This document shows positions 28,672 through 50,893 of a stretch of 64,000 bases of DNA, piece by piece. The stretch lies in NCBI RefSeq assembly GCF_005239225.2, contig NC_133296.1, positions 7,068,001 to 7,132,000 of the forward strand, given 5' to 3'. Origin of the DNA: Populus alba. Taxonomy: Eukaryota > Streptophyta > Magnoliopsida > Malpighiales > Salicaceae. Position 1 is the stretch's first letter. Every line of letters starts with the position of its first letter. The position numbers and the translations under genes were made by a program. The notes beneath the pieces are model-generated. The model was not told where the DNA came from, did no database searches, and saw only the letters and a list, made by a program, of their open reading frames with translations.

Positions 28672-30464
28672 AATTAAATAAATTAAAATTTTTAATTTAT
28701 TACGAATTCAATAATTGATTAATTTATATTTGAAGATCATGTGTATTGTCTAGTAACGTGTCATGATCCCCCAAATATTAGAAAAGTCATTAGTGGTTTG
28801 ACTTAGCCTTTCAGTGATCGATTTTTCAATGTAATTAATATCCTTTCATCATATTGTTTCAATTTAACATAAAAACATAGAGTATATCTATCATGTTAAA
28901 TAATGTTTATTCTTTACATAATAGTCATTGATCATCTAAATAAGATTTAAAACTCTTTTCAAATTTCTTTCCACCTTGACCAAGGATTTCTCAGTCACTA
29001 CTATTTGAGAATAGATGAAACATTTTTCATAATTCATCTAAGGTGATGATCATCCTCTCTTGATCACTCAAATACCTTTATATAGTTCATATTATACCCA
29101 ATGTTTGCCCTTCGTTACCTTAATTAAGATAAAAAGTAATAAAATCAAAGCATAACATTCTCTATATAAGATTACTTAGTAATCTCAAGTATAAAGAACA
29201 TTTACATAACAGTTACGTGAGCTTTTCCATAGACATAGGTTATCTCTTTCTATGGAATTCTCATACAAGTCAGTCTAGTGTACATGTCTTATGATAAAAA
29301 CTTACATATTAGTTCTAGGTATCCCTTATACCTCAGCTTATGAGAACAACTACTTCCTTTTATAAAGAAAATACCATAATATGTATCAATCTTTACGGCT
29401 TTAATGAATGTTCAATATTTAAGAGAGTATCAATGAGGAACATATTAGAAGTAATTTTTTGATGCAATAGAAATCCCATAATTATAAAAACTTTATAATT
29501 TTCTTTGTACAACATTTTTGTCTCATAGACTTTATCTTTACTCTAGATTCATTAATCTTATATTATATGAATATTAAAAATACATTAAGTCTTTACTAAT
29601 AATAATTATATATTTACATGAATATAATAATATCACGTGTAACCAACCACCTGGTTATATGGCATATTAAACTAACATAATCAACTAATTAACTAATCAT
29701 TAATATTTTGATCAATTATGTAACCTATTATCAATTTCTTCTTTCTAATAAGAAGAAACTACAACTAGGAACATAAGCAAAGACAAGTAATAGTCTCATA
29801 AAATTAAATAAATTGTGGGTATTTCAAGATTTTAAATCTTAAGAAATACATATCTATCCCAAGCAACATCACATGAGAAGAACAATAGGTAAACATGAAA
29901 ATGATTTGAAAGGAAAAAAAAAAAGAGATATATAATGTTGTAAATAAAAGCAATGACATGTATGGGGCTAGCCATTTTTTAAAGTAGTTAGATGACCCTA
30001 TTTTAATCGATATAGTGTTAGAATTTTAATCTAAGTATATAATTCTAATATTTTATAGGTAACATATATCAGATAAGGAGGTATATTGATTTTTTAATAC
30101 AAACTAAACTTTCATTTGTTGATAATCATATGAATTCCTAACTAAGCTAAACCACTTTGTCAATTTAAATTATAAGAGATTCCAACTTTGAGTAGGATTT
30201 AACATCCTAGTCATTCATAAAAATTTTATTGGTATACTATTCATGATTGATTTTTTTTTTCTTATTTAAGTATATTATTATCGAATTCACATGTGAATAT
30301 TGATGTTAACACACAAATTGAAATTGTGTCTTCAATCATTTCTCATTTTCTAATAAGTATGTGTTTGGTTTTTCTTTTTCCCTATCCCTCGTCAATCGCG
30401 GGTTAATTAATCCATCAATTCAAACATAAATATGAAGCTTGGTTAATTTGAATTGGTAGGTAGG
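28672..30464. other. Copy B of the intergenic block, second part
   Basis: Matches about 1960-3832 of copy A, and is interrupted at 30465 by the 22-kb retrotransposon. No gene. Confidence 0.75.
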
Positions 30465-30757
30465 TGACACGACCAAAAGCTTGATGTCTTCTCCCAAGTG
30501 CAGGAGTGTCGAAGTAATAAATAACCTGGCAAGACCGGGGTCGAACCACACAGAGGTTAATTGTATAAATTATAAATAACAACGCAACAATAACAATAAT
30601 AACGATAATAATAACAATAGTAGTAATAGTACTAGTAATAATAATAATAATAATAATACTCAGTACGTGGCGTTATACCTGAGAATGATATAAAAGATCG
30701 GGTCACAGGTTTTCAGCCTATATACTGAGTTTATGAACAGATAATAATAATAATAAT

Positions 30758-30790
<33 letters not shown>

Positions 30791-32201
30791 AAAGAAGAGA
30801 AGGAAGAAATTAATGAGAACTTTGAGTTGAAAGATTAATGTAAGGATTAAACAACGATAAAAATAAATGTCAAGGTTAGAGGATCCACTAATGGTACTTC
30901 AAACAAGTATAGTATAAACTTTTATTACTCAATTGGAAACCACACATAAAGGAGGTTCCAATCAGATTATAAATTGTTAACATGATTACATTAGTTATCT
31001 TATTCGAATAAAGCTAATACTTGTAAATGTTGGCAGGCATTCATGATTATAACTTATGTTAACAACAAATCAAGTTCCTTTGATAGCTCAGGTGTCGGTT
31101 ATACCATACAGTATGGGCTATGAAAGTACCAAGTATTTGTTGTACCAAGTGTTATACAACATAAATCTAGAATAACCATTTAACAAGCAAAGTATTAAAA
31201 GTGAACAAGATAACAAATATAAAACATGTTAGTATCCAACGTTAAGGTCCATGTTAAGTTTATATTATACTTATTCTTACACCATTAGTGTACCCTTTTC
31301 ACCTTGACATAATTAACTTAGCTAAACATAATGAAAGAAAGAAACATAAATGAACAAGATAAGAACATAAATGAGAAAGAAGTTAACTAAGTAAAGGAAA
31401 GGAAATGAAGTGCATAAACTTGATATTAATGAAAGCAAAACATAAGCAATACAAAAAGAGAAAGCAAGAGCATGATCTTGATCTGGAAACCAAGATGCCT
31501 CAATACATGGTAAGTGCCTCCTTTTATAGGCAAAAATTTGAAACTATTGATTTGTTAATTAATTGATGAGTGGGTGGCCACATCTTGACTTGGTGACAAT
31601 CCTTATCTTCTTGTCTGAACAAGACGTCATTGCTAACATCATAATTTGCCCAGAATACTCAGTATGTTCTAGGAAATTGTCTCAGCTTTCCAACAAAATA
31701 AAGATGAGGTCATTTGGACTTCTAGAACTCAAGATATGGGCTGAACACTAAATTGTGTCTGGGCTGCAGGACAGCTTCGGACTTCTTCATTGTTCCTTCA
31801 GTTTGGACTTCAAAACGGTCTTTTTAAATCTTGGGCTCCCATGAAAGTTGTAGGCCTTTGTCTTACCTTTCCATCCATATAAAATGGACCTAAATCCGAG
31901 ATCTAGAGCTCCAGATATGATCCAATTACCGAGCAATGTTTCGGTTTGGACTGCACCGGCATCTCTTTTCTAAGTTTGGCCATCTCTTTGTCCTTTCATT
32001 TTCAATACTTAAACTCATCAATCAATCCTTTTATTTATGTGATAGGTCTGCATTTAAGATGAGCATTTACCATAAATTAAGGTATCTTATAGTATCAAAC
32101 TTGTTATTATAAAACATGCTTTAGTTAAGGAGTTATTGATACTTCAAGTGCAAAATGATGATATAAAACCTTGATAAACATGCACTTTTAAGTACTAATC
32201 A
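30465..32201 (-). repeat. 3' LTR of the Athila-type element
   Basis: 1737 bp with TG...CA ends, paired with 50900-52607. It contains AAT/AAC microsatellites (30588-30660, 30741-30790) that differ in length from the other LTR. The purine-rich tract on the minus strand (TTAGGGGGTG) abuts its inner edge at 32202-32210. Confidence 0.9.
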
Positions 32202-33433
32202 CACCCCCTAACCAGCTTATTACTAGTCCCTAGTAATCTAAAGTGTTAAAATAGAGAAACAATTTGCAAGTTTCACAAAGCAAGGCATTCATCATTCAAC
32301 TTCCATTAATCTATCCAGATAAACAAACTCTCATTAAATTTATATTACTGCTTCATACTTCTTAAACAAGATATTAATAAACCTTCTTTTTATGTGCTCA
32401 ATATATGAAAACATAGATGATGGGGCTTTTGTTGGAAGAAAACAATATTATGTTCAAATGTTTAAGGTGAACTTCTTTGGGTTGGGATTATTATTATTAT
32501 TACTTTTTTTTTCTTTTTTTTATTTTATTTATATACACATACAACTTAAAACATAATGTATCTTTAACCCATGTAACGAGTTTTAGGCTAATGACTCCCA
32601 GACCAGTTGGTCTTAGGGCATTAGGTGTTGAGACACCCCTACGAGCTTAACAACTCGGGTTGCAGATACTGATACGTAGATAGTGCAATGTTTGATTCCC
32701 TTAAGCTTTTCTCCTTAACCCATGTAACAAGCTTTAGGCCAATAGCTCCCAAGTCAGTTGAATTTAGGGTATTAGGTGTTAAAACACCCCTTCGGGTTTA
32801 ATTGCTTAGGTTAGGGAGGCTACGAAACCAAACTTATCTACATTTTTATTATCATCAATATTATCAATATTTTTTTTTTTTGCAAATTATATACTATCCC
32901 TTTTCCTTAGTTGTTACCTTCAACAAAAGAACATAAATAATGTAATAATCCAATGTGCAACCCACAATCATATGTTAAAGTGTGTGTGTGAAAATGAAGC
33001 TTTAATAATACTTGTTAAATGAGTATATGAGCAGAATCAAGTGATAACAATGCGAGAGTTTGTAAACCTAAATATTTCAAGAAGTATTCTAATAAGCCTT
33101 GTTATGAATATTGCAAATAACCATTAGAAAATTTTTACTAAGATGCGTCTCAAGAATAATTCCTCTTTACTCTGCCATCCTAGTAATAACAGTTTTGCCA
33201 AATGGTTTTTTAAAAACAACAACAGTTAGTTGGTTAGTTTTTTTTTTTTTTTAAACTACTACCCTCTCCCCCCAACCAAAACGAGACATTGTCCTCAATG
33301 TCCTAAGGTAGAAAGATAGAGTATAGAAGACATCACCTGAAACAACGAACAATGACAAACTTGAAACACACTTAAACAAATATAAGAAGTAACAAAATAA
33401 TATGCTATTAATAAAACCAAAAGACACAAGGTT
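32202..33433 (-). other. 3' internal non-coding region of the Athila-type element
   Basis: No ORF of note. Near 33265-33310 the minus strand reads ACATTGAGGACAATG followed by a G-rich stretch, a sequence I recognise from the 3' region of Athila-type elements. 32570-32820 contains two similar blocks around ACCCATGTAACGAG / ACCCATGTAACAAG, a local imperfect duplication. Confidence 0.55.
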
Positions 33434-34078
33434 TCACAGATGAAGGCTCAAATCTAATCTAAGCTTTTTACGGCTTTCCTTAGCTGACCAATCTAGGCGA
33501 CTCATGCAAGGATCAATGACAGGGATGAAAGATTGTAGTTGGTCAATCAATTGTTCAGCAGTAGCAACAGATATTATGATTTGTCGTGCTGATGTTAGAA
33601 ATTCATGTTCCACAGCTTGATCAAGGAAAGACAGCAACTTATCATAAAAACCATTAACATTTAACAAACCTATAGGTTTATGTTGAATGTGCAGTTGGGC
33701 CCAAGATGAAATATGAAAGATCTCTTCCAATGTGCCCAGACCACCTAGTAAGGCAATGAAGGCATCAACATGGCTAAACATGGCATTCAGTCGATTAGAC
33801 ATTGTTGGGACCTGTAATTCCTCTCCAATTGTTTTTCCAATGATGTCCCCATTTATCAAAGCTTTGGGGACAACCCCCAAAACTTGACTGCCTCCTAAAA
33901 ATGCAGCCATTGACACACCTCCCACTAACCCAAGGCTACCTCCCCCATACACTAAATGAATCTTTCTCTCAGCTAGTACTTGACCAAGATGATTTGCTAA
34001 TTCTAAAAACTCATTTTCTTTCCCAGGGTCACCGAAAACACAAATATTTCTTATGTGATGAATTGAGGAACCTGCCAT
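33434..34078 (-). CDS. LOG-family cytokinin riboside 5'-monophosphate phosphoribohydrolase-like, intronless, inside retrotransposon
   Basis: A single open frame of 214 aa, normal length for plant LOG proteins, which are usually encoded by several exons. LOG enzymes release active cytokinin bases from their nucleotide 5'-monophosphates, in cytosol and nucleus. Seen: a Rossmann-type start (ICVFG...), YGGGSLGLVG at about residues 43-52, TMSNRLNAM with the conserved Arg, and LGGLGTLEEI, which corresponds to the family's PGGxGTxxE with the first Pro replaced by Leu. The SSWAQLHI.HKPIGLLNV.G.YDKLLSFLD segment is very well conserved. Overall it resembles the LOGL10-like subgroup. The start context AGAAATGGC is good for a plant, and a TATA box lies upstream. 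It sits in sense orientation in the 3' half of the Athila-type element. The absence of introns suggests a cDNA origin, yet it appears to have its own promoter. Activity is uncertain because of the Pro-to-Leu change. Confidence 0.85.
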   Translation of the reverse strand: MAGSSIHHIRNICVFGDPGKENEFLELANHLGQVLAERKIHLVYGGGSLGLVGGVSMAAFLGGSQVLGVVPKALINGDIIGKTIGEELQVPTMSNRLNAMFSHVDAFIALLGGLGTLEEIFHISSWAQLHIQHKPIGLLNVNGFYDKLLSFLDQAVEHEFLTSARQIIISVATAEQLIDQLQSFIPVIDPCMSRLDWSAKESRKKLRLDLSLHL

Positions 34079-34142: not shown

Positions 34143-34151
34143 AATTTATAG
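34143..34151 (-). promoter_or_regulatory. TATA box upstream of the LOG-like ORF
   Basis: Minus strand CTATAAATT lies about 65 bp upstream of the ATG at 34078 and is followed by a CT-rich leader (CTTCTCTTCCTTCCCTTC). This looks like a normal plant core promoter carried along with the ORF. Confidence 0.5.
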
Positions 34152-34499
34152 ATGAAAAAGTGAAAATGCAATCATACCACCTATATGTAGGTCAGCTGTA
34201 GTCTCACACTCTCTCTCTTTATTTATTTATTTTGACAAAGCATGTATGTACAGGTAGTTGTGATTGTGGCTCACATCTTCCCTTGGTTTTACGTCCAAGA
34301 ACGACTTAAATGCCCTTTATGAGTCGGGGATAGGCTTCTCATCCAGTTTTCTTAAAAACTGGCAAACAAGGTCTTTTTTAGTCAGATTCCCAAGACTAAA
34401 TCGATCATGTTCTTTATGAAAATTGGGTCATAAGTCATGAAATGCACAATGCACATTGCCACCAGGATATGTTGTAGAAGTCAATAGAAGATTATCTAA
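34152..34499. other. Junction between LOG promoter region and integrase remnant
   Basis: No ORF. Contains a TC-rich tract near 34210-34230. Integrase-like coding similarity is lost between about 34490 and 34500, which marks the breakpoint of the captured segment. Confidence 0.4.
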
Positions 34500-34697
34500 A
34501 GATTCCTTATGTTTTGAAATAAATCCTGACTTTTGACAATTTTCACAAGCTTTGCAGAACACATGTGTGTCTTTGAACATGGTGGGCCAATAGAATCCAG
34601 ATTGTAAGATTTTTGCAGTCGTCCTTTTTGACGAGAAATGACTCCCACATGCCTCAGAATGACAAAGTTTAATGACACTACTTACCTCATTGTCGGG
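34500..34697 (-). pseudogene. Integrase zinc-binding remnant, distal part
   Basis: Minus-strand frame with CHSEACGSHFSSK, FYWPTMFKDTH and CKACENCQK, the HHCC zinc-binding domain of an Athila-type integrase. It is separated from its upstream part (48050-48395) by the nested Ogre-like element. The catalytic core that should follow is absent. Confidence 0.75.
34652..34697. repeat. 46-bp direct repeat flanking the Ogre-like insertion, left copy
   Basis: CCTCAGAATGACAAAG through CATTGTCGGG, repeated at 48050-48095 with one C/T difference. It lies in the integrase remnant of the host element and occurs only once in the inferred uninterrupted order. Confidence 0.85.
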
Positions 34698-35950
34698 TGT
34701 CGCACGTCACCCGCGCGACGTCCGATGGCGATTTTTCATTTTATGTTTTTGTTGATTTGTTTGATTGGTTCTTTGGAGTCGCCACCTAGTATTATGGTTA
34801 CTAGGAACCCTAACTGGTCTTTCAGAGATTCTAAGGCAAGGGACTGGTTGTGTAAAGGGAAGGTATTAGCACCCCTATTACGCCCTACCTAAGGTAAGCT
34901 GCTTGGTGTTTGGTTTGTCTTATAATTGCTATGGTGTTGGTGTTTTCTAATCCCAACAATTTTCCTATGATAGGTTTGCTATGATGAACAAACTTGGATT
35001 CAAAGTCTAAAAAAAAAAAAGACCCTTGGTCAATGTGGATCTCACCCTTAGATATGTCTACAAAGTACCAAGGAGAACCAATGCAGATCTCTTGAAATCT
35101 GTGTTTGATTCAAACCAAATTTATTAAGATAGAAATCCATGGAGATTCCATGTGCTGTAAAAACTCATCTTTCCCTTAGTATTTCAAGAGTTTGCGACTC
35201 GTAAATCGCAAGAAGGAAGGACAGATTTAGAAATCTAAGGAAATTAGGAGCGCTTTAAAAGCCTCCTTTTGCCTTAGTATTTCATACTTTCACGGCTCGT
35301 AAACCGTGGAGTAAAAAATTTGAAATTTTGAAATGTCCTCGATTATAATCAAGGCTTCTTTCAAGGATGTGTGCGGATTTATTACTCCCAATAATATTTT
35401 GGATATTCGTCCTTTAAGGATTTCTTTATCCAAACATTAGCGGTGAATAATAGATGAATTCCCCCCAAAATAAGATTTTTATAGTTTTTGGAATATTAGC
35501 CAATACCCTTTGGAGTTTTACAAACATGTTGTAAAATCCAGAAATGCAAGAAAATAATTTGTGTTTAAGAAATCTATGCGAAAACACATTTTCAAAACTT
35601 CCAATATTTTTTTTATATAAAAAGAACATTCAAAACATGTTAGAGTATTGGCCGTATGCAACACATAAGAAAACATTTGTTTTTGATATATATGTATATT
35701 TGTCACATTGCGTCGAAAAACCGGGTATTCTAAATACGAGATTGATATTTTTTTTTACAATATAATATAAAAAAAATCTAGACCTTGAAATAAATATGCC
35801 AGAAAATAAATTTCTTTCTCTTTCTTTTATTTTATTTTAAAAATAATAATAAAAAAAAAATAGTCCGGCCGGGTCACCTGCCCAAGCAAGTGACCCGGCT
35901 GGACACAAAAAAAAGGGTACAGTTACAGCTTAAGGGTGCAAAACTGGCGA

Positions 35951-35990
35951 GTTACTGTTCAAGTGAATTAAATTTCACTTGAACAGTAAC
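35951..35990. repeat. 17-bp-stem perfect hairpin in the LTR
   Basis: GTTACTGTTCAAGTGAA and TTCACTTGAACAGTAAC around a 6-nt loop. It is repeated at 46800-46839 in the other LTR and sits at the same relative place as shorter hairpins in related LTRs. Confidence 0.9.
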
Positions 35991-37989
35991 AAATTGCAAA
36001 CAAGAAATGCATGCAGAATTGAATAACGGACCTGGAGAAAAACGAAGGAGCTGCAGCAATGTTGAAGGCGTGCTGGCTGGTCTGTCCGTGTTCGTCTGCT
36101 CCAGCTCTTTTCCCTTTGTTCTCTGCTTGCGTCGGTCTCCTGCGTTCAGTTCTGTGTCCTCATCCCTTTCTCTCTACTGGTTTTAGCTTTTCTATCCTCT
36201 CTTCTGTTCTGCAGATCCTGGCGCTGAAAGTACAGGCGAAGGAGATGGCACTCCAGCTTCTCTTGTGCACAACCGGTCACGCTGATTCTGAAGACAACGA
36301 AGAATGCTGGTAACTGGTGTTGATCTCTGTCTTTCTCTTCTTGCCGATGCTTTCTCTGGAGACGACTGGGACCAGCTGCTGGTGCAGAGACGAGACTGGT
36401 CGCACTACTGGATTGTTGTTGCGGCTAGTACCTGCTTCCAGTGGTTGAGGGGCTGCGAGTTAGCGATGGCTGCCGGGGCTGAAGAAGACGCCGCTGTTGA
36501 AGCTGGAGACGGCTGCGTTCTGGTGCAGGACTTGGAGAAGAACTGTCTGTTTGAAATGTGAAGCAAAGCTCCTAACACTGCTTGTGACTCACGGTTTTGG
36601 CTGATAGTAAGAGAGGTTGTTGGACCGTGGGGAAGAATCTGGTGGTGATGGGGAGAAGCCAAAAAGAAAGACAGGACGAGGCTTTGGTTTTCTTGCTGTT
36701 CGGGTGAGGGACGATGTGTTAGGACCTGCTAGTTGGGAGTAGAGTCTGAAAGTTTGTGTTGATGAGCGGCTATGGGCTGTTTTTTTTTAGACTGACGGAA
36801 GGGAAAACTTTGCTGAGGGAAGGGGAAGGACGTTTGTGAAAAGAGAGATGGGGCTGTGACTTTAATGGGGTTCTCTGGAATTGCAAAGGAAGAATGGAGA
36901 TAGGGAACTAACAGAGAGGGGAGTTGCTGTGTTTTGGAGAAGAGATGGCGATGGTGGAAGGGCTGAGAGGGGAATCGGGGTTCTGGTGAAAGGGAGAGGG
37001 GACAGTGTAATGGCCAGAGAGAGATCCTTCTTTTCTCTCAGGGACTAGCTGCTTCGTTATTTTTTTTTTCTTTAAAAGATCAGCAGGGCTACGCTTCTTT
37101 GCTAGAGAAATAGGGTTAGGGTTTTTCTATGTTTCCTTTTATTTTTGTTTGCCTTTTTTTTTTTTTGCCCTCCCCCTGTAAAATTTTTCTCCCCCTCTTA
37201 TATAAGGCTGGATGTTCATTTATATAGAAAATCTCTACATGTGTTTATTTAAGGAAATATTACAATAATTATTGCAGAGATTATTTTCTATAACCATCAC
37301 CAACAAATCTCATATATATGGTATTTTATATTGCATTGATTATTTTCCATAACCGGCACGAATCAAATCATATATCCATTGTAATATTTTATATTGTAGT
37401 ATTTATATATGATTTAACAATTATCTCCTTGACATATTGCTTCCTTAATATTATTTCTGATGCTCTATGTTATCGCCACATGTAAACCTTTATTTTTTAT
37501 TTTTTTTTATTTGTGAAAATTTATCGATACATGGATTTAAAATTAGGTAGCAACAGATGCCCCCTCTTTACAATGCTTACGAAGCAAAACTTCTCAATGT
37601 TTTGCATAGTAAGCTTGTAAAGAAAAAAAAAGTCTTCCTCACTGGCTGAGTGATCCACTCATCCAAGGACTTCACTTTTTTTAAAAAGAAAATTGGTCTA
37701 TTTTCACGGGCGACCTGCCCACACACTCTCAACCTGGTCTATTTTCAGGGTCGACCTGCTCATATACTCATGCTGGTCTATTTTTATGGGTGACCTACCT
37801 TTTTGATTGGGTTAAACCAAGATCCTATCTGGCGATCTTCTTTAACTCGAAGCAAAGTCGGTGTGTAGCTCAGTCAACCTGAAATCTCATCTGACGATTC
37901 CCTTTAACCAAAGCTAAACTCTGTGTGTGGTTGGGTTAAACTGAGATCCCATCTAGCGATCTCCTTTAACCACATCCAATATAAAAATA

Positions 37990-39120
37990 TGTGTGTGGTC
38001 TCATTATGACGGGTGACCTACCCAAGTGAAAAAGGGGAAGAGTGGTCTCATTCTTATGGGTGACCTACCCAGGGGGATGAATGACCTCATTATAATGGGT
38101 GACCTACCCAAGTAAAAAAAAAAAAAAATGGAGAATGGTCTCATTCTAATGGGTGACCTACCCAGAAAAAATGGTCTCATTGTGATGGGTGACCTACCCA
38201 AGTGGAAAAGAGAAAAAGTGGTCTCATTCTTATGGGTGACCTACCCAGGGGGAAGAATGGCCTCATTATAATGGGTGACCTACCCAGGTAAAAAAAAAAG
38301 ATGGAGAATGGTCTCATTCTAATGGGTGACCTACCTAGAAAAAATGGTGGTCTCATTATGATGGGTGACCTACCCAAGTGGAAAGGGGGAAGAGTGATCT
38401 CATTCTTATGGGTGACCTACCCAGGGGGAAGAATGGCCTCATTATAATGGGTGACCTACCTAGGTAAACAAAAGATGGAGAATGGTCTCATTCTAATGGG
38501 TGACCTACCCAGAAAAATGGTCTCATTATGATGGGTGACCTACCCAAGTGGAAAAGAGGAAGAGTGGTCTCATTCTTATGGGTGACCTACCCAGGGGGAA
38601 GAATGGCCTCATTATAATGGGTGACCTACCCAGGTAAAAAAAGATAGAGAATGGTCTCATTCTAATGGGTGACCTACCCAAGAAAAATGGTGGTCTCATT
38701 GTGATGGGTGACCTACCCAGGTGAAAAGGGGGAAGAGTGGTCTCATTCTTATGGGTGACCTACCCAGGGGAAAGAATGGTCTCATTATAATGGGTGACCT
38801 ACCCAGGTAAAAAAAAAAAGATGGAGAATGGTCTCATTCTAATTGGTGACCTACCCAGAAAAAATGGTCTCATTGTGATGGGTGACCTACCCAAGTGGAA
38901 AGGGGGAAGAATGGTCTCATTCTTATGGGTGACCTACCCAGGGGAAAGAATGGCCTCATTATAATGAGTGACCTACCCAGGTAAAAAAAAAAGAAAAAAA
39001 AGATGGAGAATGGTCTCATTCTAATGGGTGACCTACCCAGAAAAAATGGTCTCATTGTGATGGGTGACCTACCCAAATGTAAGATGGTCTCATTATGACG
39101 GGTGACCTACCCAAATGGAA
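37990..39120. repeat. Tandem array with higher-order structure in the Ogre-like LTR
   Basis: The basic unit is about 35-40 bp with core ATGGGTGACCTACCCA, itself a near-palindrome (GGGT...ACCC). Four unit types distinguished by CTTATG, TATAATG, CTAATG and GTGATG/ATGATG alternate in order, giving a higher-order period of roughly 150-180 bp repeated six to seven times. Poly-A runs of varying length punctuate the third spacer. More diverged relatives (GGTCTATTTT, GACCTGCC) occur at 37690-37800 and 39140-39410. ORFs with GRSPIxMRP repeats on the minus strand simply follow the period. Confidence 0.9.
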
Positions 39121-40099
39121 GATGATGGTTTTTTTTTTTTAGAAAGGGGTCTCAATATCTGGAGACCTGCCTATTGTAAAAATTTAGAACAACTCCACGT
39201 TTTTTTTTTTTTTTTTTTTTTGAAAAAAAAAACTCCATGCTTTATTTTTTAGGAAACAATCTCAATATCGGGTGACTGGCCCCTCTTAAAATTCTTAGAA
39301 AACTCCACGCTTTTCTAAGAAACAGTTTCAATATCAGGCGATCGGCCCAAAAACATTCTTAGAAAACTCCACGCTTTTCTAAGAAATGGTCTCAATATCG
39401 GGTGACCTGCCCATCTCAAACTTCAAAAGAAAACATCTTACCTCGAGGAAATGAAACAGTGCTGGTTCACAATTCATATTCTTTTCCGTAGCTCCGTTGA
39501 CTTGAGATTGTCTCTTAGTGATTCCCAAAAACTTGGAACTATTTTGGCTTTCGTCACACATTCTCCTATTTTGAAAACATAGGTCCCCTTTTCTGTTGTA
39601 GACTTATTGAGCTTCTGTTTCCATTTGTTTGTCTGACTCATCTTCTTACAACAGAATATGCTCCATGTGTTATACTTCCTATCCTCTTGGTGAAGAGATC
39701 TTTGGTTCCTTATGGGGCCCTTTCTTGCTCAATTGGGTATTGTCTTTTATTATTTTAAAAGGAAAACTCAAAAGATTTGGTTTTGTTCATGAAAACTAAA
39801 ACTTTCAATGCAATTAGCAATTCTCATAAAAGATGCTTTTTTAGAAGTTTTTATTATGATACCCCTTTGGGCTTTGGTTCACTATGGACCCCTATGTGCA
39901 CTTCATGCACTTCTTGCCCCCTAGTGTGGTGTGCAAAAATATATCAAGTTTAGATTTGATTTGGTTCTCTCCAATTGATGGAGTCATCTCCTTATTCATG
40001 CGTAAAAAAACAGTTCTTTTAAGTAAAAGATTTGAAATGCTATAAGATCATATGTTTTATGAAAAAAAAGGTTCTTTACAAAGAGAATTCATGGCCGAA

Positions 40100-40870
40100 C
40101 TTTATTTCATTGATCGGGAAGCATAGTATTTCTTTATAGAGTCAGTATTCACAGGTCTAACTAGATCTTCTCCATCCATTCTAGATAACAAGAAAGCTCT
40201 TCCTGAGACCACTTTCTTTACCACGTAAGGGCCCTCATTGTTTGGCGCCTATTTACTCTAATCTTCTCCTAGTAAAAGCAATATTTTCTTCAACGTAAGA
40301 TCTTCTTCGTGGAATCCTTGAGGTCGGACCTTCTTATCATATGATTTGGCCATTCTTCTTTAGTATAGTTGATGATGGCAAATTACAGCTATCCTCTTTT
40401 CACTTATCAGATTCAACTATTTATATCTAACTTTTGCCCATTCCAACTCTTCTAAACTCAAAGTCTATCAATACTCTTAATGAGGGGTTTTCCACTTCTA
40501 AAAGCATCGCCGCCTCTATTCCATATACCAAACATATACGGGGTGGCTCCTATTGAGGTTTGGAATGCGGTGCAGTATGCGTGAAGGGCCAATGGCAACA
40601 TCTCATGTCAATCCTTGTAGGTGAATATCATCTTCTAAATAATCTTCTTGACATTTTTGTTAGCAACTTCTACCACACCATTCATCTTTGGCCTATGTGA
40701 CGAGGAATTGGAATGCTTGATTTTCCATCCAGTGTAGAGTTCTATTGTCATCTTGCCATTGAAGTTTTAGGCATTATTGGATATGATCTTTTCTAGTGGA
40801 CCATATCGACAGATCAAATCTCTTTTCATAGACTTCTTCACCACTTTTTGCCTCCAAAATCTCAATAAAG
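40100..40870 (-). pseudogene. Ogre/Tat-type integrase remnant
   Basis: The minus strand shows integrase-like pieces (SHRPKMNGVVEVANKN, then LALHAYCTAFQTS.GATPYMF) with stop codons and frameshifts. Together with the upstream segments it belongs to the same decayed pol gene. Confidence 0.65.
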
Positions 40871-41134
40871 TCTCGTCGGATGATTTTTACACAAAATTTC
40901 CCAATCAAGACAAAAATCCCTTGCCAACCTCCTCAAAGTCTTCTTATTGATTGTGGATGCCCCCATGGGATATGTCTGGTTTTGGATGAAATTCTTGATA
41001 TCATAGTACCAAGGGTTTCCATTTATTTCCCTTTCAACTAAGTAACAATGAGCTAAGTTATTTCTTATATCAATGTGTATCGGTTGTACCTTGTGCCCAA
41101 AGTCGATTCTAGCCATAGAAGTTGGCGTGACCAA
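40862..41134 (-). pseudogene. Ogre/Tat-type RNase H-integrase linker remnant
   Basis: Open segment with IHIDIRNNLAHC, NPWYYDIKNFI and YPMGASTINKKTLRRLA, which matches the linker between RNase H and integrase in Tat/Ogre polyproteins as I recall them. It is one fragment of a frameshifted pol. Confidence 0.7.
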
Positions 41135-41289
41135 AACATCAGAATGATTACCTTCCCTTCCTAGATGGGTGAATTCTATTTTCTCAAATTATCCGGCTAA
41201 TTTGGACAAGTATTCATGGTAAGGCCTTAACTTCTCTTCCTTGGTTTTCCATTCTCTTTTTTACTTGGAAAATTATCAACATTGAGTCT

Positions 41290-41640
41290 TCATACACATC
41301 TATCTTTCTGATGTTTAGCTCCAATGCAACCACTAAAATCGAGAATGCAAGCTTCATACTCAGTTGTGTTATTAGTACACCCAAATTGTGACTTAACTAA
41401 AACCGAATATTGTTTCTTATTAGGAGAGATTAACACAGCCCCCCACTCTGTTACCATAGCACCATCAAAATACACAATCCAACAATCTAATTTCCCTTCC
41501 TCGACTGAAAACACATCTTCATTAGGAAAATCAACGTTTAACAGCTCATAATCTTCCATAGCATGGTCAGCTAGGTGATCAGTGATGACATTCCCTTTCA
41601 TGGCTTTCCTTGTCATGTATACTATGTTGTACTCAGCTTG
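41290..41640 (-). pseudogene. Ogre/Tat-type RNase H remnant
   Basis: Contains CWIVYFDGA, GAVLISP and CTNNTTEYEACI, the first acidic and TEYEA motifs of retrotransposon RNase H. The downstream part is out of frame. Confidence 0.75.
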
Positions 41641-41756
41641 TAGAACTTGTCATTTTGCAATTCGGCTTGATAGATAGGGGTGGATTCAGTAGGTACTGCT
41701 TGATTTTCTCAAAAACTTCTTCACACTCTTATTCCAAATTCCAAAATTCTTCTTCC

Positions 41757-42700
41757 TTAACAATCAAAGATTAGCTCACAAGTCGTGGTTAATTGGAATA
41801 TAAACCGGGCAATGTAATTCAATCTTCCTAAGAACCTTATTACATCCTTCTCAGTCTTGGGAGGTGGCATAAATTGAATAGCCTTTACTTTGTTGGGATC
41901 CACTTTTATCCCTTTGTCACTCAACACAAATTCTAACAACTTTCCAGATTTCACCTCGAATGAACACCTCGTTTGGTTAAGCCTCAACTTATACTTTCTT
42001 AGTCTTTCAAATAATTCCTTCAATGACTCTCTTCCTCTTCAGATTTAGCAGTCATATCATCCATGTATACCTCAATCTCTTTGTGCATCATGTCATGAAA
42101 TAAAGTCACCATGGTCCTTTGGTAGCTGGCCCTGACATTCTTCAATCCAAATGGCATGACCTTGTAACAAAAAGGTTCCCCATGGTGTTATAATGTTGTC
42201 TTCTTCTTATCCTCTTACGCCATTTTTATCTGATTGTAGCTCGAAAATCCGTTCATAAAGGAATATGTGGAGCTACATGCTGCATTGTCAAACATATCTA
42301 TGTGTGGTAGACAAACTCTGATTTTATCTTCCTTTTTTGGTACAACCACTATGTTGGACACCTATTGTGGATATTTGACTACTTTTAAAAAATCGGCGTT
42401 CCACTGCTTTTCAATTTCTGCTTTTACATTGATTAAGACATCCGGATGGATTCTTCTAAACTTTTGCTTAATCAATTTGCATCCTTCTACCAGAAGTACC
42501 CTTTGTATTACGATATCCGTATCTAAGCCAAACATATCCTCATAAGAACAAGCAAATACATCTATATAATCTTGAAGTAATCAACTCTTCTCTTTCTTTA
42601 GGGGTAATCAAAGTCCCTATCTTCAACTCTCTCTTGATTTCTTCATTGCCCACATATATGGTTTCAAGTTCTTCTTTAGCGGGTTTCCAAGCTTGTTCGT
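41757..42700 (-). pseudogene. Ogre/Tat-type reverse transcriptase remnant
   Basis: Minus-strand pieces in order: DVFACSYEDMFGLDTDIV, CKLIKQKFRRI, LPHIDMF (with about 15 residues missing before it), GFSSYNQIKMA, FCYKVMPFGLKN, YMDDM (the catalytic F/YxDD box) and SDKGIKVDPNKVKAI. Several stops and frameshifts make it non-functional. Confidence 0.75.
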
Positions 42701-43423
42701 GTTATTAATTTTTGTGAATCCCCTAATGTTATTTTCCTACCATTCTTCCTCTTTTACAACTAATATGTATTCTTTAAAGTCCGGCCATTCATTCTCAATG
42801 TAAAGTGCAAGTGTAGTTATGGAAGATTTGCTTTGAAAAGGAAAGTGATGTGTAAAAACACCAAGATGAACTTTTGAAAATGCATGATCTCATAAAAGGG
42901 AAAAAGTTGTCTAAAAAAACATTTGCTCGAGCAATTTAATTAGGTGCGCAACATTATTCCAAATTCCTTCAAGCTCTTTTTGGTATTATGTTCCTAGGTG
43001 TGACCTTACTTCATTTTTTTATCCTTTTCCTTAGTCAAGTTTGTGGATTCTAGAAAAGGGACCTACGTTTCTAGGTCTACAGATACGTGCATAGATGTAT
43101 AAGAAAATGCATGATACGATGCATGATTGTGATAAGAATGCTTTCTATATTGGGTATGGATGCAGCCTTCTTGTGAACGAATAATAGCCATCACCTTATA
43201 AACATAGGTTCTCTTGTCACATTGCTAGGAGTATTGCCTTTCAAGTCATTTGCTTGAATCATATTCACCAAGAGACAGATTTTGCATAAGAAGATTGGTC
43301 AACGCCCTTTTCATTAATGCTTGATAAGTTTATTACATTTAGAAATACCATATTTTAATCCCTTTCCTTAACAAACTCTCTGACCAAAGCTAAAAAGGCA
43401 AAGCCGCGGTTCTCAATCTTTCC
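42701..43423 (-). other. Expected gag/protease position, nothing recognised
   Basis: Between ORF1 and reverse transcriptase, where Ogre gag and protease should lie, only about 0.7 kb is present. I see no zinc knuckle or protease motif, so gag and protease are probably deleted. Confidence 0.4.
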
Positions 43424-44963
43424 TTAACAAATTTTTTCTTGGTAATATTCTGCACTTCCTTGGCAATCGTTAAAGTCAATCTCCATTGCTTCAAGTTCAG
43501 AGCAACTTTGCATCCAATCCAAACTCATCCTTCCTAGCTCCTTCTCACTTTCTTCCCTGGTAATCTTCTCCTCACCTAGCTTTAACTCAAGCTTTGTTAT
43601 TCGCGCATCTCTAAATTGTATTTGCTCATCTAGAAATGCTCTCCTTTTATCTTCTTTTAGCATCATTTCTTTCAACATTGTCTTGTCTTTCATGCTTTAG
43701 CTCAACTCTATTCGAAGTTTTTCCACTTGCCTTTTTAACTCCTCTTCATTATTGACCCTTTTGCTCTTAATAGGCTTTTATATAGTTTGGGGAGATTTGG
43801 CCTCTACACAAGGCATGGCTGAAGTAGTTAAGTCTCTCCATCTTGCATATCCTTCACTTGCACTTGGATCCTTTAAACCTTCTATCTTAACCAAAACCAG
43901 ATACCTCCAATCTTGTTAGATGATCTCCAAAACTTCTTGTGCAATGGGATCTTTGAACAAACCAATGAATTGAGCAATTCCTATAGTCCTTAGAATAAAC
44001 TGCATGCCCCCAAGTTGCCTTACCATTAGGGCAGGAGCATAACTCACATAACCTGTAATCCCTACCAATGGCACCCAACGTCTTTGTCCACAACTCATTA
44101 GGACTTCCACTGTCGTTACTCATGGGGCTCTCCACTTAAAATCACTATTAGGCAAACCTTTTAATTTGTCAACCCAACCTTGGTTGTCTAGATCTCCCCA
44201 TTCTTCTTCTTCTACTAACTTCAGGGGTCTTTGGGTGAACCACCAAAAATCATTGAAGACAGGCTTTTTTTTTGTTTCGATATGGCTAACCATCCAGATA
44301 TACAACAATTACGTGCAGCATCTCATTGCTTCTTTTCCAGTCCTCCTACAATGGTTAAGTGTCAAGATGGTTTCGGCTAAAACCAGCTACTGGATTGATT
44401 TGTGTATTCTCACTCTACATAAGCAGCAGCGACCTCCAAACTCACTACACCCGTCTGGCTTGAGAGCAACACAAAGCCAAAAATGCCCAAGGCAATCAAT
44501 CTCTTTTTTCTAATCCTGACTTCTTTTCTAGTTCAATTTCTAGCATCCTCCATTTTAGACCGGTTGCATTCTTTTCCAAAAACTTTTCTAATTTGACGAT
44601 TCTGAGCAGTTTTGACAGTTCGAGGATGATCTTGCCAGATCTCAAAGGAAAATAAATCATATACAGATTGTTTGGAAACTCCGTCAACATTTCATATTCC
44701 TCCATAGTGGGACATAGGTATATGCTTCTAAAAGAAAAAACACCAGTAGTCTGGATCCAAAAATGAACTAAGGCTCGCACAGCTGGGCTTAAAACTTCTA
44801 TCCTTGCAATTTCCACCAAACATCTGTATTTCCTAAAAAATGCATCCTTATCCACATTCTGAAAGCGAGTCATTAACTTGTTCACCTCATTCATAATGCA
44901 ATTTAGGTTCTTGATTGGTGACAGTTTCTTAGCATCGCTTCTAAGGCAGTCTCCTTTAGTCAA
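43424..44963 (-). pseudogene. Ogre ORF1 (DUF7745-like), frameshifted
   Basis: Segments in order on the minus strand are 44963-44496 (NPVRALVHFW-type region, SPAVRALVHFWIQTTGVFSF, PTMEEYEMLT), 44308-43887 (GITGYVSYAPALMVRQLGGMQFI, GIAQFIGLF), and 43693-43424, a Lys/Glu-rich coiled coil. This resembles the DUF7745 protein encoded by the extra upstream ORF of Ogre elements, whose role is unknown. Frameshifts separate the pieces. Confidence 0.65.
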
Positions 44964-45524
44964 TTGTGACAGTTCAAAATTTTTCCATATTCTATGATGG
45001 AAAATTTAGCAATGGTGGCCATTTCGTTCACAAGTCCTGGTCTTCAAAATGCCTTAGGGTTAGACTTGTTTTGATACAAAAGATATTATGGAGCATACAC
45101 CCTAATGATAGGTTCTAGTTCCTTTACGTGAGACATGGGGTAGGTTTACTACTTGGTCTCTAAAAAAGGGTCTCCTGTTGTCCCAGTGATCGCCCTCGTA
45201 AAGGCAATATGGGGGTTCAGCAGATGGTGGGATGGCACGTGTACCAATCACTATCAATCTAAACACTCAGCAAAGAGTTAGGGTTTACACAAACTTAAAC
45301 CTTGACTCAAGTCATAAGGCAAGCTGCTAGTTCCCCACTTAACTTAAAGTTTAATGTGTGTGCTCTCCAAAAAGAGAATAATAATAAAGTGATGAATGAC
45401 TACATCATGTATGACAGAATGTAAAGATGCATGCTAAAGCTTTTAAACAAATTATGATTCATAGTAAAAAAAACAACAACACATAGCATAATAACAAAAA
45501 CAATTACCAAGCTTAGTCCAAGGG

Positions 45525-45542
45525 TCCCCAGTGGAGTCGCCA
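45525..45542 (-). promoter_or_regulatory. Primer binding site, tRNA-Arg type (Ogre-like element)
   Basis: The minus strand reads TGGCGACTCCACTGGGGA, 3 nt inside the 5' LTR (which ends at 45546). This is the primer type typical of Ogre elements and it fixes the element's orientation. Confidence 0.75.
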
Positions 45543-45545
45543 TTC

Positions 45546-48045
45546 TGTCGCACGTCACCCGCGTGGCGTCTGATGGCGATTTTTCATTTTATGTTTTTGT
45601 TGATTTGTTTGATTGGTTTTTTGGAGTCGCCACCTAGTATTATGGTTACTAGGTACCCTAACTGGTCTTTCAGAGATTCTAAGGCAAGGGACTGGTTGCG
45701 TAAAGGGAAGGTATTAGCACCCCTATTACGCCCTACCTAAGGTAAGCTGCTTGGTGTTTGGTTTGTCTTATAATTGCTATGGTGTTGGTGTTTTCTAATC
45801 CCAACAATTTTCCTATGATAGGTTTGCTATGATGAACAAACTTGGATTCAAAGTCTAAAAAAAAAAAAGACCCTTGGTCAATGTGGATCTCACCCTTAGA
45901 TATGTCTACAAAGTACCAAGGAGAACCAATGCAGATCTCTTGAAATCTGTGTTTGATTCAAACCAAATTTATTAAGATAGAAATCCATGGAGATTCCATG
46001 TGCTGTAAAAACTCATCTTTCCCTTAGTATTTCAAGAGTTTGCGACTCGTAAATCGCAAGAAGGAAGGACAGATTTAGAAATCTAAGGAAATTAGGAGCG
46101 CTTTAAAAGCCTCCTTTTGCCTTAGTATTTCATACTTTCACGGCTCGTAAACCGTGGAGTAAAAAATTTGAAATTTTGAAATGTCCTCGATTATAATCAA
46201 GGCTTCTTTCAAGGATGTGTGCGGATTTATTACTCCCAATAATATTTTGGATATTCGTCCTTTAAGGATTTCTTTATCCAAACATTAGCGGTGAATAATA
46301 GATGAATTCCCCCCAAAATAAGATTTTTATAGTTTTTGGAATATTGGCCAATACCCTTTGGAGTTTTACAAACATGTTGTAAAATCCAGAAATGCAAGAA
46401 AATAATTTGTGTTTAAGAAATCTATGCGAAAACACATTTTCAAAACTTCCAATATTTTTTTTATATAAAAAGAACATTCAAAACATGTTAGAGTATTGGC
46501 CGTATGCAACACATAAGAAAACATTTGTTTTTGATATATATGTATATTTGTCACATTGCGTCGAAAAACCGGGTATTCTAAATACGAGATTGATATTTTT
46601 TTTTTACAATATAATATAAAAAAAATCTAGACCTTGAAATAAATATGCTAGAAAATAAATTTCTTTCTCTTTCTTTTATTTTATTTTAAAAATAATAATA
46701 AAAAAAAAATAGTCCGGCCGGGTCACCTGCCCAAGCAAGTGACCCGGCTGGACACAAAAAAAAGGGTACAGTTACAGCTTAAGGGTGCAAAACTGGCGAG
46801 TTACTGTTCAAGTGAATTAAATTTCACTTGAACAGTAACAAATTGCAAACAAGAAATGCATGCAGAATTGAATAACGGACATGGAGAAAAACGAAGGAGC
46901 TGCAGCAATGTTGAAGGCGTGCTGGCTGGTCTGTCCGTGTTCGTCTGCTCCAGCTCTTTTCCCTTTGTTCTCTGCTTGCGTCGGTCTCCTGCGTTCAGTT
47001 CTGTGTCCTCATCCCTTTCTCTCTACTGGTTTTAGCTTTTCTATCCTCTCTTCTGTTCTGCAGATCCTGGCGCTGAAAGTACAGGCGAAGGAGATGGCAC
47101 TCCAGCTTCTCTTGTGCACAACCGGTCACGCTGATTCTGAAGACAACGAAGAATGCTGGTAACTGGTGTTGATCTCTGTCTTTCTCTTCTTGCCGATGCT
47201 TTCTCTGGAGACGACTGGGACCAGCTGCTGGTGCAGAGACGAGACTGGTCGCACTACTGGATTGTTGTTGCGGCTAGTACCTGCTTCCAGTGGTTGAGGG
47301 GCTGCGAGTTAGCGATGGCTGCCGGGGCTGAAGACGACGCCGCTGTTGAAGCTGGAGACGGCTGCGTTCTGGTGCAGGACTTGGAGAAGAACTGTCTGTT
47401 TGAAATATGAAGCAAAGCTCCTAACACTGCTTGTGACTCACGGTTTTGGCTGATAGTAAGAGAGGTTGTTGGACCGTGGGGAAGAATCTGGTGGTGATGG
47501 GGAGAAGCCAAAAAGAAAGACAGGACGAGGCTTTGGTTTTCTTGCTGTTCGGGTGAGGGACGATGTGTTAGGACCTGCTAGTTGTCTGAAAGTTTGTGTT
47601 GATGAGCGGCTATGGGCTGTTTTTTTTTTTAGAAAGGGGTCTCAATATCTGGAGACCTGCCTATTGTAAAAATTTAGAACAACTCCATGTTTTTTTTTTT
47701 TTTTTGAAAAAAAAACTCCATGCTTTATTTTTTAGGAAACAATCTCAATATCGGGTGACTGACCCCTCTTAAAATTCTTAGAAAACTCCACACTTTTTCT
47801 AAGAAACAGTTTTCAATATCAGGCGATCGGCCCAAAAACATTCTTAGAAAACTCCACGCTTTTCTAAGAAATGGTCTCAATATCGGGTGACCTGCCCATC
47901 TCAAACTTCAAAAGAAAACATCTTACCTCGAGGAAATGAAACAGTGCTGGTTCACAATTCATATTCTTTTCCGTAGCTCCGTTGACTTGAGATTGTCTCT
48001 TAGTGATTCCCAAAAACTTGGAACTATTTTGGCTTTCGTCACACA
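45546..48045 (-). repeat. 5' LTR of the Ogre-like element, internally deleted
   Basis: 2500 bp, nearly identical to the outer parts of 34698-39560. It lacks the 2.35 kb corresponding to 36791-39141, with the junction inside a poly-T tract followed by AGAAAGGGG (47620-47637). Beyond its outer end lie four bases, TTCT, and then the 46-bp repeat. Confidence 0.85.
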
Positions 48046-48049
48046 TTCT

Positions 48050-48095
48050 CCTTAGAATGACAAAGTTTAATGACACTACTTACCTCATTGTCGGG
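48050..48095. repeat. 46-bp direct repeat flanking the Ogre-like insertion, right copy
   Basis: Duplicate of 34652-34697. The host element's integrase frame continues to the right from here. Confidence 0.85.
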
Positions 48096-48395
48096 AATGC
48101 GTCTTTGAAATATTTGATCTGGACAATTTTTGAATAAGTAAGGGTCATCCACATAAAAGTTCTTCACTTCGTTCAAAAACTTTCCTTTGTCTTCGGTACT
48201 TCAGTGAGGTGGCAAATCTCCTAAAGGAAGAAAATTGATATTTTTAGCAAACCAAGGCATTGAACTAAGAGAAAGTAAGGATTCGTCAGGAGAGTAATCA
48301 TCGATTGGTGGGATGTCAGATGTCAAATCTGTTGTCACTTTTGACAAAAGATTAGCATCAATATTTTTGGTGCCTTTTTCATCCGTGATTTCTTC
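48096..48395 (-). pseudogene. RNase H-integrase junction remnant of the Athila-type element
   Basis: Minus-strand frame with DEKGTKN, PWFAKNINFL, a stop, DKGKFLNEVKNFYVDDPYLFKNCPDQIF and RIPDNEVSSVIK, typical of the segment that leads into the Athila integrase zinc-binding domain. It directly follows the protease ORF, so reverse transcriptase and most of RNase H are deleted at about 48395. Confidence 0.7.
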
Positions 48396-50875: not shown

Positions 50876-50893
50876 CCCCGGGCAACGGCGCCA
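50876..50893 (-). promoter_or_regulatory. Primer binding site, tRNA-Asp type (Athila-type element)
   Basis: The minus strand reads TGGCGCCGTTGCCCGGGG, a few nt inside the 5' LTR. It matches the complement of the plant tRNA-Asp 3' end except for one extra C, as commonly seen for Athila elements. Confidence 0.75.

What the first reader, a model, noticed from the sequence alone, without database searches (positions are those of the whole stretch)
33434..34078. A complete LOG-family (cytokinin-activating) ORF carried inside an LTR retrotransposon
The sequence shows an uninterrupted 214-codon LOG-like frame in sense orientation between the integrase remnant and 3' LTR of an Athila-type element bounded by LTRs and a target duplication. 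Plant LOG genes normally have several introns; this one has none, yet it has a TATA box and CT-rich leader of its own. If transcribed it would be a mobile hormone-activation gene. The frame stays open while neighbouring gag and pol have decayed, which hints at selection or very late capture.
Basis: partly seen in the sequence, partly recalled or inferred. Interest (0 to 1): 0.88.

Follow-up and report, generated by a model that had tools for sequence, protein, structure and literature searches.

The report
Jumping gene carrying hormone-activating enzyme gene
A plant hormone-activation gene found inside a white-poplar retrotransposon is no one-off passenger: it is a regular part of a family with hundreds of copies, usually beside a gene resembling a plant-virus silencing suppressor, and its protein was conserved while the family spread, although the copy first noticed is a decayed member.

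Summary
The ORF is real: 214 codons, LOG-type, intronless, minus strand 34078->33434. Its element spans 30465-52607, not 30465-34697; 34697 is the edge of a nested LTR element. A LOG 32-mer (up to 3 mismatches) occurs 953 times (reversed-pattern control 0). In 20 of 20 sampled copies LOG lies between the same leader and polypurine-tract region; 19 of 20 also hold an ORF sequence whose tested members match Pfam carlavirus nucleic-acid-binding proteins. The window copy lost most of that ORF. Of 38 copies chosen by flanking DNA, 38 contain LOG sequence and 15 keep the full frame. Tree test on 33: internal branches 21 nonsynonymous to 31 synonymous, terminal 214 to 82 (p=2e-5); shifted-frame and non-coding controls show no such contrast. 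The viral-like ORF and integrase agree; gag only for transitions. A stricter fixed-difference count was uninformative. Two Rhamnella gene models suggest the same order outside Populus. LOG is best read as an accessory gene kept by selection while the element transposed. Cytokinin activation and silencing suppression are inferred, untested. The window's own LOG lacks conserved motif residues and is probably inactive.

The parts
50900..52607 (-). 5' LTR of the LOG-bearing element
   Evidence: 95.4% identical to 30465-32201; K2P 0.0245 over 1702 sites
30465..32201 (-). 3' LTR
   Evidence: TG...CA ends seen
30460..30464 (.). target-site duplication, GTAGG copy
52608..52612 (.). target-site duplication, GTAAG copy (one difference)
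3828..3832 (.). paralogous empty target site elsewhere in the window
   Evidence: repeat pairs 3582-3832/30221-30464 and 3828-4191/52608-52975; joined flanks agree in 126 of 133 aligned columns
50875..50893 (-). primer binding site, TGGCGCCGTTGCC-type (tRNA-Asp assignment is recalled)
   Evidence: sequence after the 5' LTR
49120..50597 (-). gag remnant, several frames (only 50145-50597 has a significant Pfam hit)
   Evidence: Retrotrans_gag E 1.2e-15 on 50145-50597; no significant hit on 49151-49684; frames
48396..49184 (-). aspartic protease remnant; the reverse transcriptase segment that follows in other copies is missing here
   Evidence: Asp_protease_2 E 4e-5, 24.6 bits against 24.3; blocks
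48039..48395 (-). end of RNase H / start of integrase, by alignment with other copies and by eye (no Pfam hit on 48201-48395)
34698..48053 (.). second LTR element nested in the integrase region; not part of the LOG element
   Evidence: LTR pairs 34698-36788/45546-47628 and 39130-39567/47620-48052; 42-bp flank duplication
34428..34706 (-). frame fusing the integrase zinc-binding domain to part of the tail of the viral-like ORF; integrase core and most of that ORF are deleted
   Evidence: Integrase_H2C2 E 1.2e-14; block order
34144..34150 (-). TATAAAT 66-72 bp upstream of the LOG ATG, in a CT-rich leader
   Evidence: TATAAAT in 20 of 20 copies and in L070-L072
33434..34078 (-). LOG-type ORF, 214 codons, no intron
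33261..33275 (-). internal polypurine-tract-like run downstream of LOG
   Evidence: sequence
32202..32213 (-). polypurine tract directly before the 3' LTR
   Evidence: sequence

Best explanation
The ORF is one decayed copy of an accessory gene belonging to a high-copy LTR retrotransposon family in Populus. The family's order is LTR - gag - protease - (RT/RNase H, missing in part of the copies) - integrase - carlavirus-type nucleic-acid-binding ORF (called NABP here) - LOG with its own TATA-containing leader - polypurine tract - LTR. Shown: position, copy number, recent transposition, and a pattern of changes that means protein-level constraint on LOG and NABP during transposition and near-neutral decay after insertion. 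Supported by gene models only: an NABP-LOG pair in Rhamnella. Inferred: LOG was captured as an intronless copy of a plant LOG long ago; its product releases active cytokinin from nucleotide precursors in the cell where the element is expressed; NABP dampens RNA silencing or acts on nucleic acids. Together they would make dividing, permissive cells in which the element copies itself. The window copy was inserted, lost most of its NABP and its integrase core by deletion, was split by a nested element, and its LOG is probably inactive.
For: Whole-genome search: 1737 first-look LOG candidates, 150 scored; these 150 match over 1-214 or 2-214 at 90-100%, 132 of 150 without an internal stop (ranked by protein score, so biased). 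953 LOG, 878 NABP and 596 RT 32-mer matches with at most 3 mismatches, reversed-pattern controls 0. 20 of 20 copies have leader, LOG and PPT region contiguous; 18 of 20 show the 3' LTR and 18 of 20 integrase pieces within the fetched 10 kb. NABP sequence in 19 of these 20, uninterrupted in 10 of the 19. Flank-seeded sample: LOG in 38 of 38, full frame in 15. Tree test, 33 of 38: terminal N+stop:S 214:82, internal 21:31, p=1.8e-5; transitions only p=9e-4; 18 stops terminal, 0 internal. Controls: shifted frames p=0.63 and 0.07 (opposite direction), PPT region p=0.76. Variants shared by 3 or more copies 26:20 against singletons 106:35, p=0.024. NABP p=0.003, integrase p=0.027. NG86 dN/dS 0.23-0.31 between L070-L072 and 31 intact copies at dS 0.16-0.21. 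LTR K2P 0.0012-0.0186 in five copies, four with perfect 5-bp duplications. Divergence of 3 subfamily copies from 12 others: NABP 0.042, leader 0.060, LOG 0.072, PPT region 0.107. NABP of L010: PF05515 E 1.3e-7, PF01623 E 3.3e-6, both above cut-off; 28 of 28 diverse members match PF01623 at E<=0.01. Rhamnella gene models. LOG tree: with two Arabidopsis LOGs, 99/89.
Against: No expression or enzyme data were reachable. None of the 120 nearest LOG relatives keeps the lysine that follows the conserved arginine in the two Arabidopsis chains and the bacterial 5zbj (0 of 120), and the stem branch is long (1.52), so the substrate may have changed. A stricter test, differences fixed between L070-L072 and 30 intact copies, gave only 8 N: 2 S and no departure from singletons (p=1.0). 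L070-L072 were themselves picked as best protein matches to P0098, which biases dN down. Gag shows the contrast only for transitions (p=0.31 all, 0.035 transitions). The NABP, gag and integrase tests use mostly copies ranked by LOG protein, not the flank-seeded set. Internal branches of the LOG test rest on 52 changes. NABP's cysteine spacing (C-X2-C-X4-C-X3-C) differs from the C-X2-C-X9-C-X4-C given for Potato virus H (PMC3689765, passage). No viral sequence was compared directly. P0271 gave no NABP/Carla_C4 hit in my own Pfam scan; its NABP part rests on 75% identity to P0220 and on the precomputed table.
Confidence: 0.74

Rival explanations
1. LOG is passive cargo: captured once, copied by chance with the element, and open only because copies are young.
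For: After insertion LOG decays at about the neutral ratio (flank-seeded singleton transitions N:S 1.76, expected 1.75; transversions 7.5, expected 4.76); only 15 of 38 flank-seeded copies keep the full frame; the fixed-difference test was null.
Against: Internal-branch N:S 21:31 against 214:82 terminal with clean controls; subfamily dN/dS 0.23-0.31; LOG diverges less than the adjoining PPT region, 0.072 against 0.107; copies without the full RT segment and with LTRs 0.1-0.5% apart still hold an open LOG.
Confidence: 0.08
2. The protein is kept by selection but no longer activates cytokinin; it has become another nucleotide phosphoribohydrolase or a binding protein that serves reverse transcription or nucleotide pools.
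For: L or M in 117 of 120 relatives at the position after the conserved arginine, and K in none; stem branch 1.52; the NCBIfam cytokinin equivalog model scores 101 bits, far below its 300 cut-off (the model's taxonomic scope was not examined).
Against: Arginine in 114 of 120 and the final glutamate of PGGxGTxxE in 116 of 120; two Arabidopsis LOG-type chains are its closest solved relatives.
Confidence: 0.25
3. Selection acts for the host: some copies are domesticated cytokinin genes and the constraint comes from them.
For: NCBI names two such proteins LOGL10 in P. trichocarpa and P. nigra, so annotation pipelines accept them as genes.
Against: P0098 (P. trichocarpa) has no close counterpart in P. 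alba: the best of 150 scored (of 1750 candidates) is 85% identical, with a stop; the constraint is on internal branches of a transposing family and not seen on terminal ones.
Confidence: 0.08
4. The NABP resemblance to carlavirus proteins is convergence of a basic stretch plus a short zinc finger, not descent.
For: Matched stretches are 31-84 residues; cysteine spacing differs from a carlavirus protein; P0243 is below the PF01623 cut-off, P0262 and P0277 below the PF05515 cut-off, and P0271 has no hit.
Against: Both curated cut-offs reached or exceeded for the four Populus ORFs scanned, from L010, L012, L016 and L027 (Carla_C4 on L027 only equals its cut-off, 20.9); 28 of 28 members match PF01623 and 27 of 28 PF05515 at E<=0.01.
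Confidence: 0.25

Closest known systems
Plant LTR retrotransposons with a sense additional ORF between pol and the 3' LTR (aORF-3S: Athila4/Calypso, Bagy2)
   Same: Same place and sense between pol and 3' LTR (section 4 and passages of PMC7264820 read).
   Different: Those are described as env-like; here the two ORFs are a LOG-type enzyme and a carlavirus-type nucleic-acid-binding protein.
Orchid Ty3/gypsy elements with an AlkB m6A demethylase domain
   Same: A plant gypsy family that fixed an enzyme domain also known from flexiviruses (passages of PMC9289625).
   Different: RNA demethylase, not a hormone-activating enzyme; different domain and host.
[quoted passage not shown]
   Same: Host coding sequence inside an LTR element (passages of PMC13317346 and PMC7264820).
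   Different: Here one whole gene is a regular component of hundreds of copies and constrained during transposition.
LONELY GUY cytokinin riboside 5'-monophosphate phosphoribohydrolase
   Same: PF03641/TIGR00730 family, PGGxGTxxE motif and conserved arginine in most relatives.
   Different: 43-51% identical to the two Arabidopsis chains in the three retro-LOGs compared, no intron, Lys lost, borne by a retrotransposon.
Carlavirus cysteine-rich protein / NABP
   Same: PF05515 and PF01623 matches, a basic run before a Cys4 finger. The viral proteins are reported as silencing suppressors, and CVB p12 also as a transcription factor inducing hyperplasia (passages of PMC12172455 and PMC3689765).
   Different: Shorter finger spacing than Potato virus H, a conserved C-terminal part of about 60 residues beyond the Pfam match, retrotransposon location.

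Membership tests
LOG phosphoribohydrolase family | PF03641 / TIGR00730 profile match above cut-off | tested here: met
   114 bits against 27; 137 against 96
LOG phosphoribohydrolase family | PGGxGTxxE motif and conserved arginine | tested here: inconclusive
   Conserved in most of 120 relatives; the window copy keeps the arginine and glutamate but has L for P and lacks residues of the CGSS loop
LOG phosphoribohydrolase family | Lysine after that arginine, as in 2a33, 1ydh and 5zbj | tested here: not met
   0 of 120 relatives and not in the window copy
LOG phosphoribohydrolase family | Activity on cytokinin nucleotides | not testable with these tools
   needs an enzyme assay
LTR retrotransposon, Ty3/gypsy order of domains | Paired LTRs, target duplication, PBS, PPT, gag, protease, RT before integrase | tested here: met
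   Window: LTRs, TSD, PBS, PPT, gag, protease, integrase finger; gag, RT, RNase H, then integrase in L027, where protease is below its cut-off
Athila lineage | RT phylogeny within Athila | not tested
   No lineage tree built; PBS type, integrase wording and position of extra ORFs are recalled resemblances
Carlavirus NABP/CRP family | PF05515 and PF01623 above curated cut-off | tested here: met
   32.3 against 23 and 27.4 against 20.9 on L010; some non-Populus members fall below
Carlavirus NABP/CRP family | C-X2-C-X9-C-X4-C finger as in Potato virus H | tested here: not met
   C-X2-C-X4-C-X3-C invariant in 28 sequences; the spacing in other carlaviruses was not checked
Carlavirus NABP/CRP family | Suppression of RNA silencing | not testable with these tools
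   needs a reporter assay

The most novel reading that the evidence does not exclude
A retrotransposon lineage shared by distant rosids carries a virus-like accessory pair, a silencing suppressor of flexivirus type and a cytokinin-activating enzyme. It uses hormone production to create dividing, unsilenced cells for its own amplification: a chromosomal parasite that manipulates plant development as Agrobacterium or gall pathogens do.
Probability: 0.33. Interest if true: 0.95.

Novelty: new variant of a known kind. Interest (0 to 1): 0.86.

Why it matters
Gag and pol are considered sufficient for LTR-retrotransposon movement, and the purpose of the extra ORFs that some plant elements carry is unsettled. 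Here two such ORFs resemble proteins of known function, a hormone-activation enzyme and a viral nucleic-acid-binding protein, and both show the protein-level constraint seen for integrase. That makes concrete, testable predictions about how a transposon could influence its host's cell division and silencing. It also warns that LOGL10-type genes annotated in poplar may be transposon genes, which would distort cytokinin gene-family studies.

Tried and rejected
Relatives of LOG and NABP in viral contigs: none. A host orthologue of P. trichocarpa LOGL10 (P0098) as donor: no close counterpart among the 150 scored in P. alba. Host multi-exon LOGs: swamped by the family; one likely host exon, C2:865530-865622, 84% over 31 residues; donor not identified. 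Bacterial origin of LOG: not supported by the tree, which holds 69 of the 80 bacterial loci fetched (11 with stops dropped; one search kept the best 80 of 577), 2 plant and 2 bacterial PDB chains and 5 retro-LOGs. First counts on a protein-ranked sample were set aside as biased and a flank-seeded sample used instead. The fixed-difference test gave nothing. A structure of NABP was asked for, to compare with viral proteins; the job never finished. Literature: in 10 searches no listed title or abstract start names a LOG or a carlavirus-type protein in a plant retrotransposon. Searches listed 20 of 29 and 20 of 456; the full texts were not read; subscription papers and preprints are not held. PMC6338049 (passages) concerns a helicase domain in insect retrotransposons and does not mention carlaviruses.

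Corrections to my own notes: note 4 says 17 of 38 uninterrupted; recounting one search gives 15 with the full KCVEM start plus one 229-codon frame (L051) with another start. It also says 34 over full length and 4-5 partial; it is 33 and 5 (L037, L045, L046, L047, L058).

Full report
WHAT IS THERE. The ORF is real: 214 codons on the minus strand at 34078->33434. It matches PF03641, TIGR00730 and, as nearest solved structures, the Arabidopsis LOG-type proteins At2g37210 and At5g11950. It is intronless and in the sense of the surrounding element.

THE ELEMENT. Self-comparison of the window shows LTRs at 30465-32201 and 50900-52607, 95.4% identical (K2P 0.0245 over 1702 aligned sites, 41 substitutions, 8 gaps). 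Flanks carry GTAGG/GTAAG, and a paralogous repeat elsewhere in the window holds the empty site at 3828-3832; joined flanks agree with it in 126 of 133 aligned columns. So the element is 52607->30465. A second LTR element (34698-48053) sits inside its integrase region and made the false right edge at 34697. Going down the minus strand from the 5' LTR one meets the PBS, gag (PF03732 E 1e-15), protease (PF13650 E 4e-5), no RT segment, the end of RNase H and start of integrase by alignment with other copies, the nested element, the integrase zinc finger (PF17921 E 1e-14), a leader with TATAAAT, LOG, a first polypurine run, and a second one abutting the 3' LTR.

HOW MANY, AND WHERE. The window lies in G000:C13. 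The lengths of contigs C1 and C15 equal those of records annotated Populus alba. A protein search had 1737 first-look candidates; 150 were scored, all of these 90-100% identical over nearly the whole protein, 132 of 150 without an internal stop. That list is ranked by protein score and therefore biased. A LOG 32-mer with up to 3 mismatches occurs 953 times, the reversed-pattern control 0 times. I took 20 of these 150 places as 10-kb stretches. In 20 of 20 the leader, LOG and the PPT region are contiguous; in 18 of 20 the 3' LTR and in 18 of 20 integrase pieces also lie in the stretch. Twelve of 20 stretches hold a match of at least 600 nt to the RT segment, on either strand, and 8 do not. In seven of those eight the protease and RNase H/integrase blocks abut; the eighth, L026, is cut off close to the leader. 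The family is therefore a mix of RT-bearing copies and RT-deleted ones, and both kinds carry LOG.

AGE. Five copies with both LTRs in reach have LTR K2P of 0.0148, 0.0052, 0.0031, 0.0012 and 0.0186; four of the five show perfect 5-bp target duplications. A sixth, partial pair differs at 2 of 1256 sites. The window's 0.0245 makes it older than these.

A SECOND EXTRA GENE. Between integrase and LOG most sampled copies have an ORF of 182 codons from its first ATG, whole or broken. That of L010 matches Viral_NABP (PF05515, E 1.3e-7, 32.3 bits against a cut-off of 23) and Carla_C4 (PF01623, E 3.3e-6, 27.4 against 20.9) (first seen). Its sequence is present in 19 of the 20 copies and uninterrupted in 10 of the 19. 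Its 32-mer occurs 878 times and that of RT 596 times. On contig C1, 40 of 69 exact LOG matches have an exact NABP match 845-907 bp upstream on the same strand (exact matches only, so a lower bound). The window copy lost most of it: its integrase finger is fused directly to the ORF's tail. Carlavirus proteins of this kind are reported as silencing suppressors, one also as a transcription factor causing hyperplasia (passages of PMC12172455; PMC3689765). The finger spacing here, C-X2-C-X4-C-X3-C, is not that of Potato virus H, and no viral sequence could be aligned directly.

OTHER PLANTS. Two Rhamnella gene models are telling. P0262 runs from integrase-like sequence into NABP. P0271 runs from NABP into a decayed LOG (PF03641 E 2e-15; 47% identical over 118 residues to a Populus retro-LOG). 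Read together they give the order integrase - NABP - LOG in another plant order. Two cautions: the integrase reading of P0262 is by eye and recall, not by Pfam, and P0271 has no NABP hit in my Pfam scan; its NABP part is 75% identical to P0220.

IS THE GENE UNDER SELECTION? To avoid bias I chose copies by the DNA of the PPT region, not by LOG (1482 candidates, 40 scored, giving 40 places, one of them the window). I fetched LOG for 38 of the other 39; the 39th was already held as L011 and is not in the flank-seeded set. LOG sequence is present in 38 of 38, over its whole length in 33; 15 of 38 keep the full frame. On a tree of 33 of the 38 (5 dropped for gaps), terminal branches have 214 nonsynonymous or stop changes to 82 synonymous; internal branches have 21 to 31 (Fisher p=1.8e-5; transitions only 160:73 and 18:26, p=9e-4; 18 stops terminal, none internal). 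The same tree read in shifted frames gives p=0.63 and p=0.07, both in the opposite direction. The non-coding PPT region read as codons gives p=0.76 (17 of 18 copies found among the 20 stretches). Using mostly LOG-ranked copies, NABP gives 97:54 and 14:24 (p=0.003; 23 in the tree of 24 found in 27 stretches), integrase 66:47 and 6:14 (p=0.027; 12 of 13 found in 20), and the gag region 111:75 and 50:44 (p=0.31; transitions p=0.035; 15 found in 20). Singleton transitions in flank-seeded LOG match the neutral expectation, 1.76 against 1.75. Variants shared by three or more copies are 26:20 against singletons 106:35 (p=0.024). Between L070-L072 and 31 intact copies NG86 dN/dS is 0.23-0.31 (these were chosen by protein score), and divergence of those three from 12 others runs NABP 0.042, leader 0.060, LOG 0.072, PPT region 0.107. 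Against this, a strict count of differences fixed between the three and 30 intact copies found only 10 (8 N, 2 S), no departure from singletons. I read the whole as constraint while the element transposes and relaxation after insertion, as for genes the element needs.

ORIGIN AND STATE OF THE ENZYME. In a tree with 69 bacterial loci the retro-LOGs join the two Arabidopsis LOGs (99/89) on a stem of 1.52 changes per site: a plant gene, long ago or fast evolving. Across the 120 listed relatives the conserved arginine is kept in 114 and the last glutamate of PGGxGTxxE in 116, but the lysine after the arginine in none. The window copy lacks residues of the CGSS loop, has L for P in PGG (as have 17 of the 120 relatives), and has lost one more residue near 165. 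It is probably inactive, and its open frame needs no explanation by selection.

MECHANISM. Shown: a mobile, high-copy gene pair with a TATAAAT about 70 bp before the LOG ATG in 20 of 20 copies. Inferred: LOG raises active cytokinin and NABP weakens silencing where the element is expressed. The main alternative is a changed nucleotide substrate.

COMPARISON. Sense ORFs between pol and 3' LTR are known in plants and called env-like (PMC7264820, section 4 read). A gypsy family with an AlkB domain is known from orchids (PMC9289625, passages). Gene capture by LTR elements is known (PMC13317346, passages). In ten literature searches no listed title or abstract start names a LOG or a carlavirus-type protein in a plant retrotransposon. 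I call it a new variant of a known kind. The name Athila is recalled, not tested by an RT tree.

Noticed in passing
34656-34697 and 48054-48095: The nested LTR element is flanked by an exact 42-bp direct duplication of integrase sequence, far longer than the usual 4-6 bp (recalled); its right end also does not look like CA. Unexplained.
   Followed up: partly
37992-39120: Array of about 40-bp repeats (26 copies, higher-order spacing 170-176 bp) inside one LTR of the nested element; the other LTR lacks it.
   Followed up: no
1-30464 and 52608-55469: The flanks are mutually repetitive (for example 13083-15685 / 23080-25676, 93% identical), a duplicated cluster not identified.
   Followed up: no
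L011, L019, L020, L022, L023, L025, L028 and the window: An RT-deleted subclass joins protease to RNase H/integrase at nearly the same place; four of these copies have LTRs 0.1-0.5% apart, so it spread recently without its own full RT.
   Followed up: partly
G000 C22:10352-10906, C11:409833-410387, C8:17246080-17246634: A second, divergent LOG class (open frame 195 codons, each with 1-2 TGA, 51-53% identical to At2g37210) that may be another retro-LOG lineage.
   Followed up: no
P0098, P0103: Proteins named LOGL10 in P. trichocarpa and P. nigra appear by sequence to belong to this retrotransposon family; cytokinin gene-family counts in poplar may include transposon genes.
   Followed up: partly
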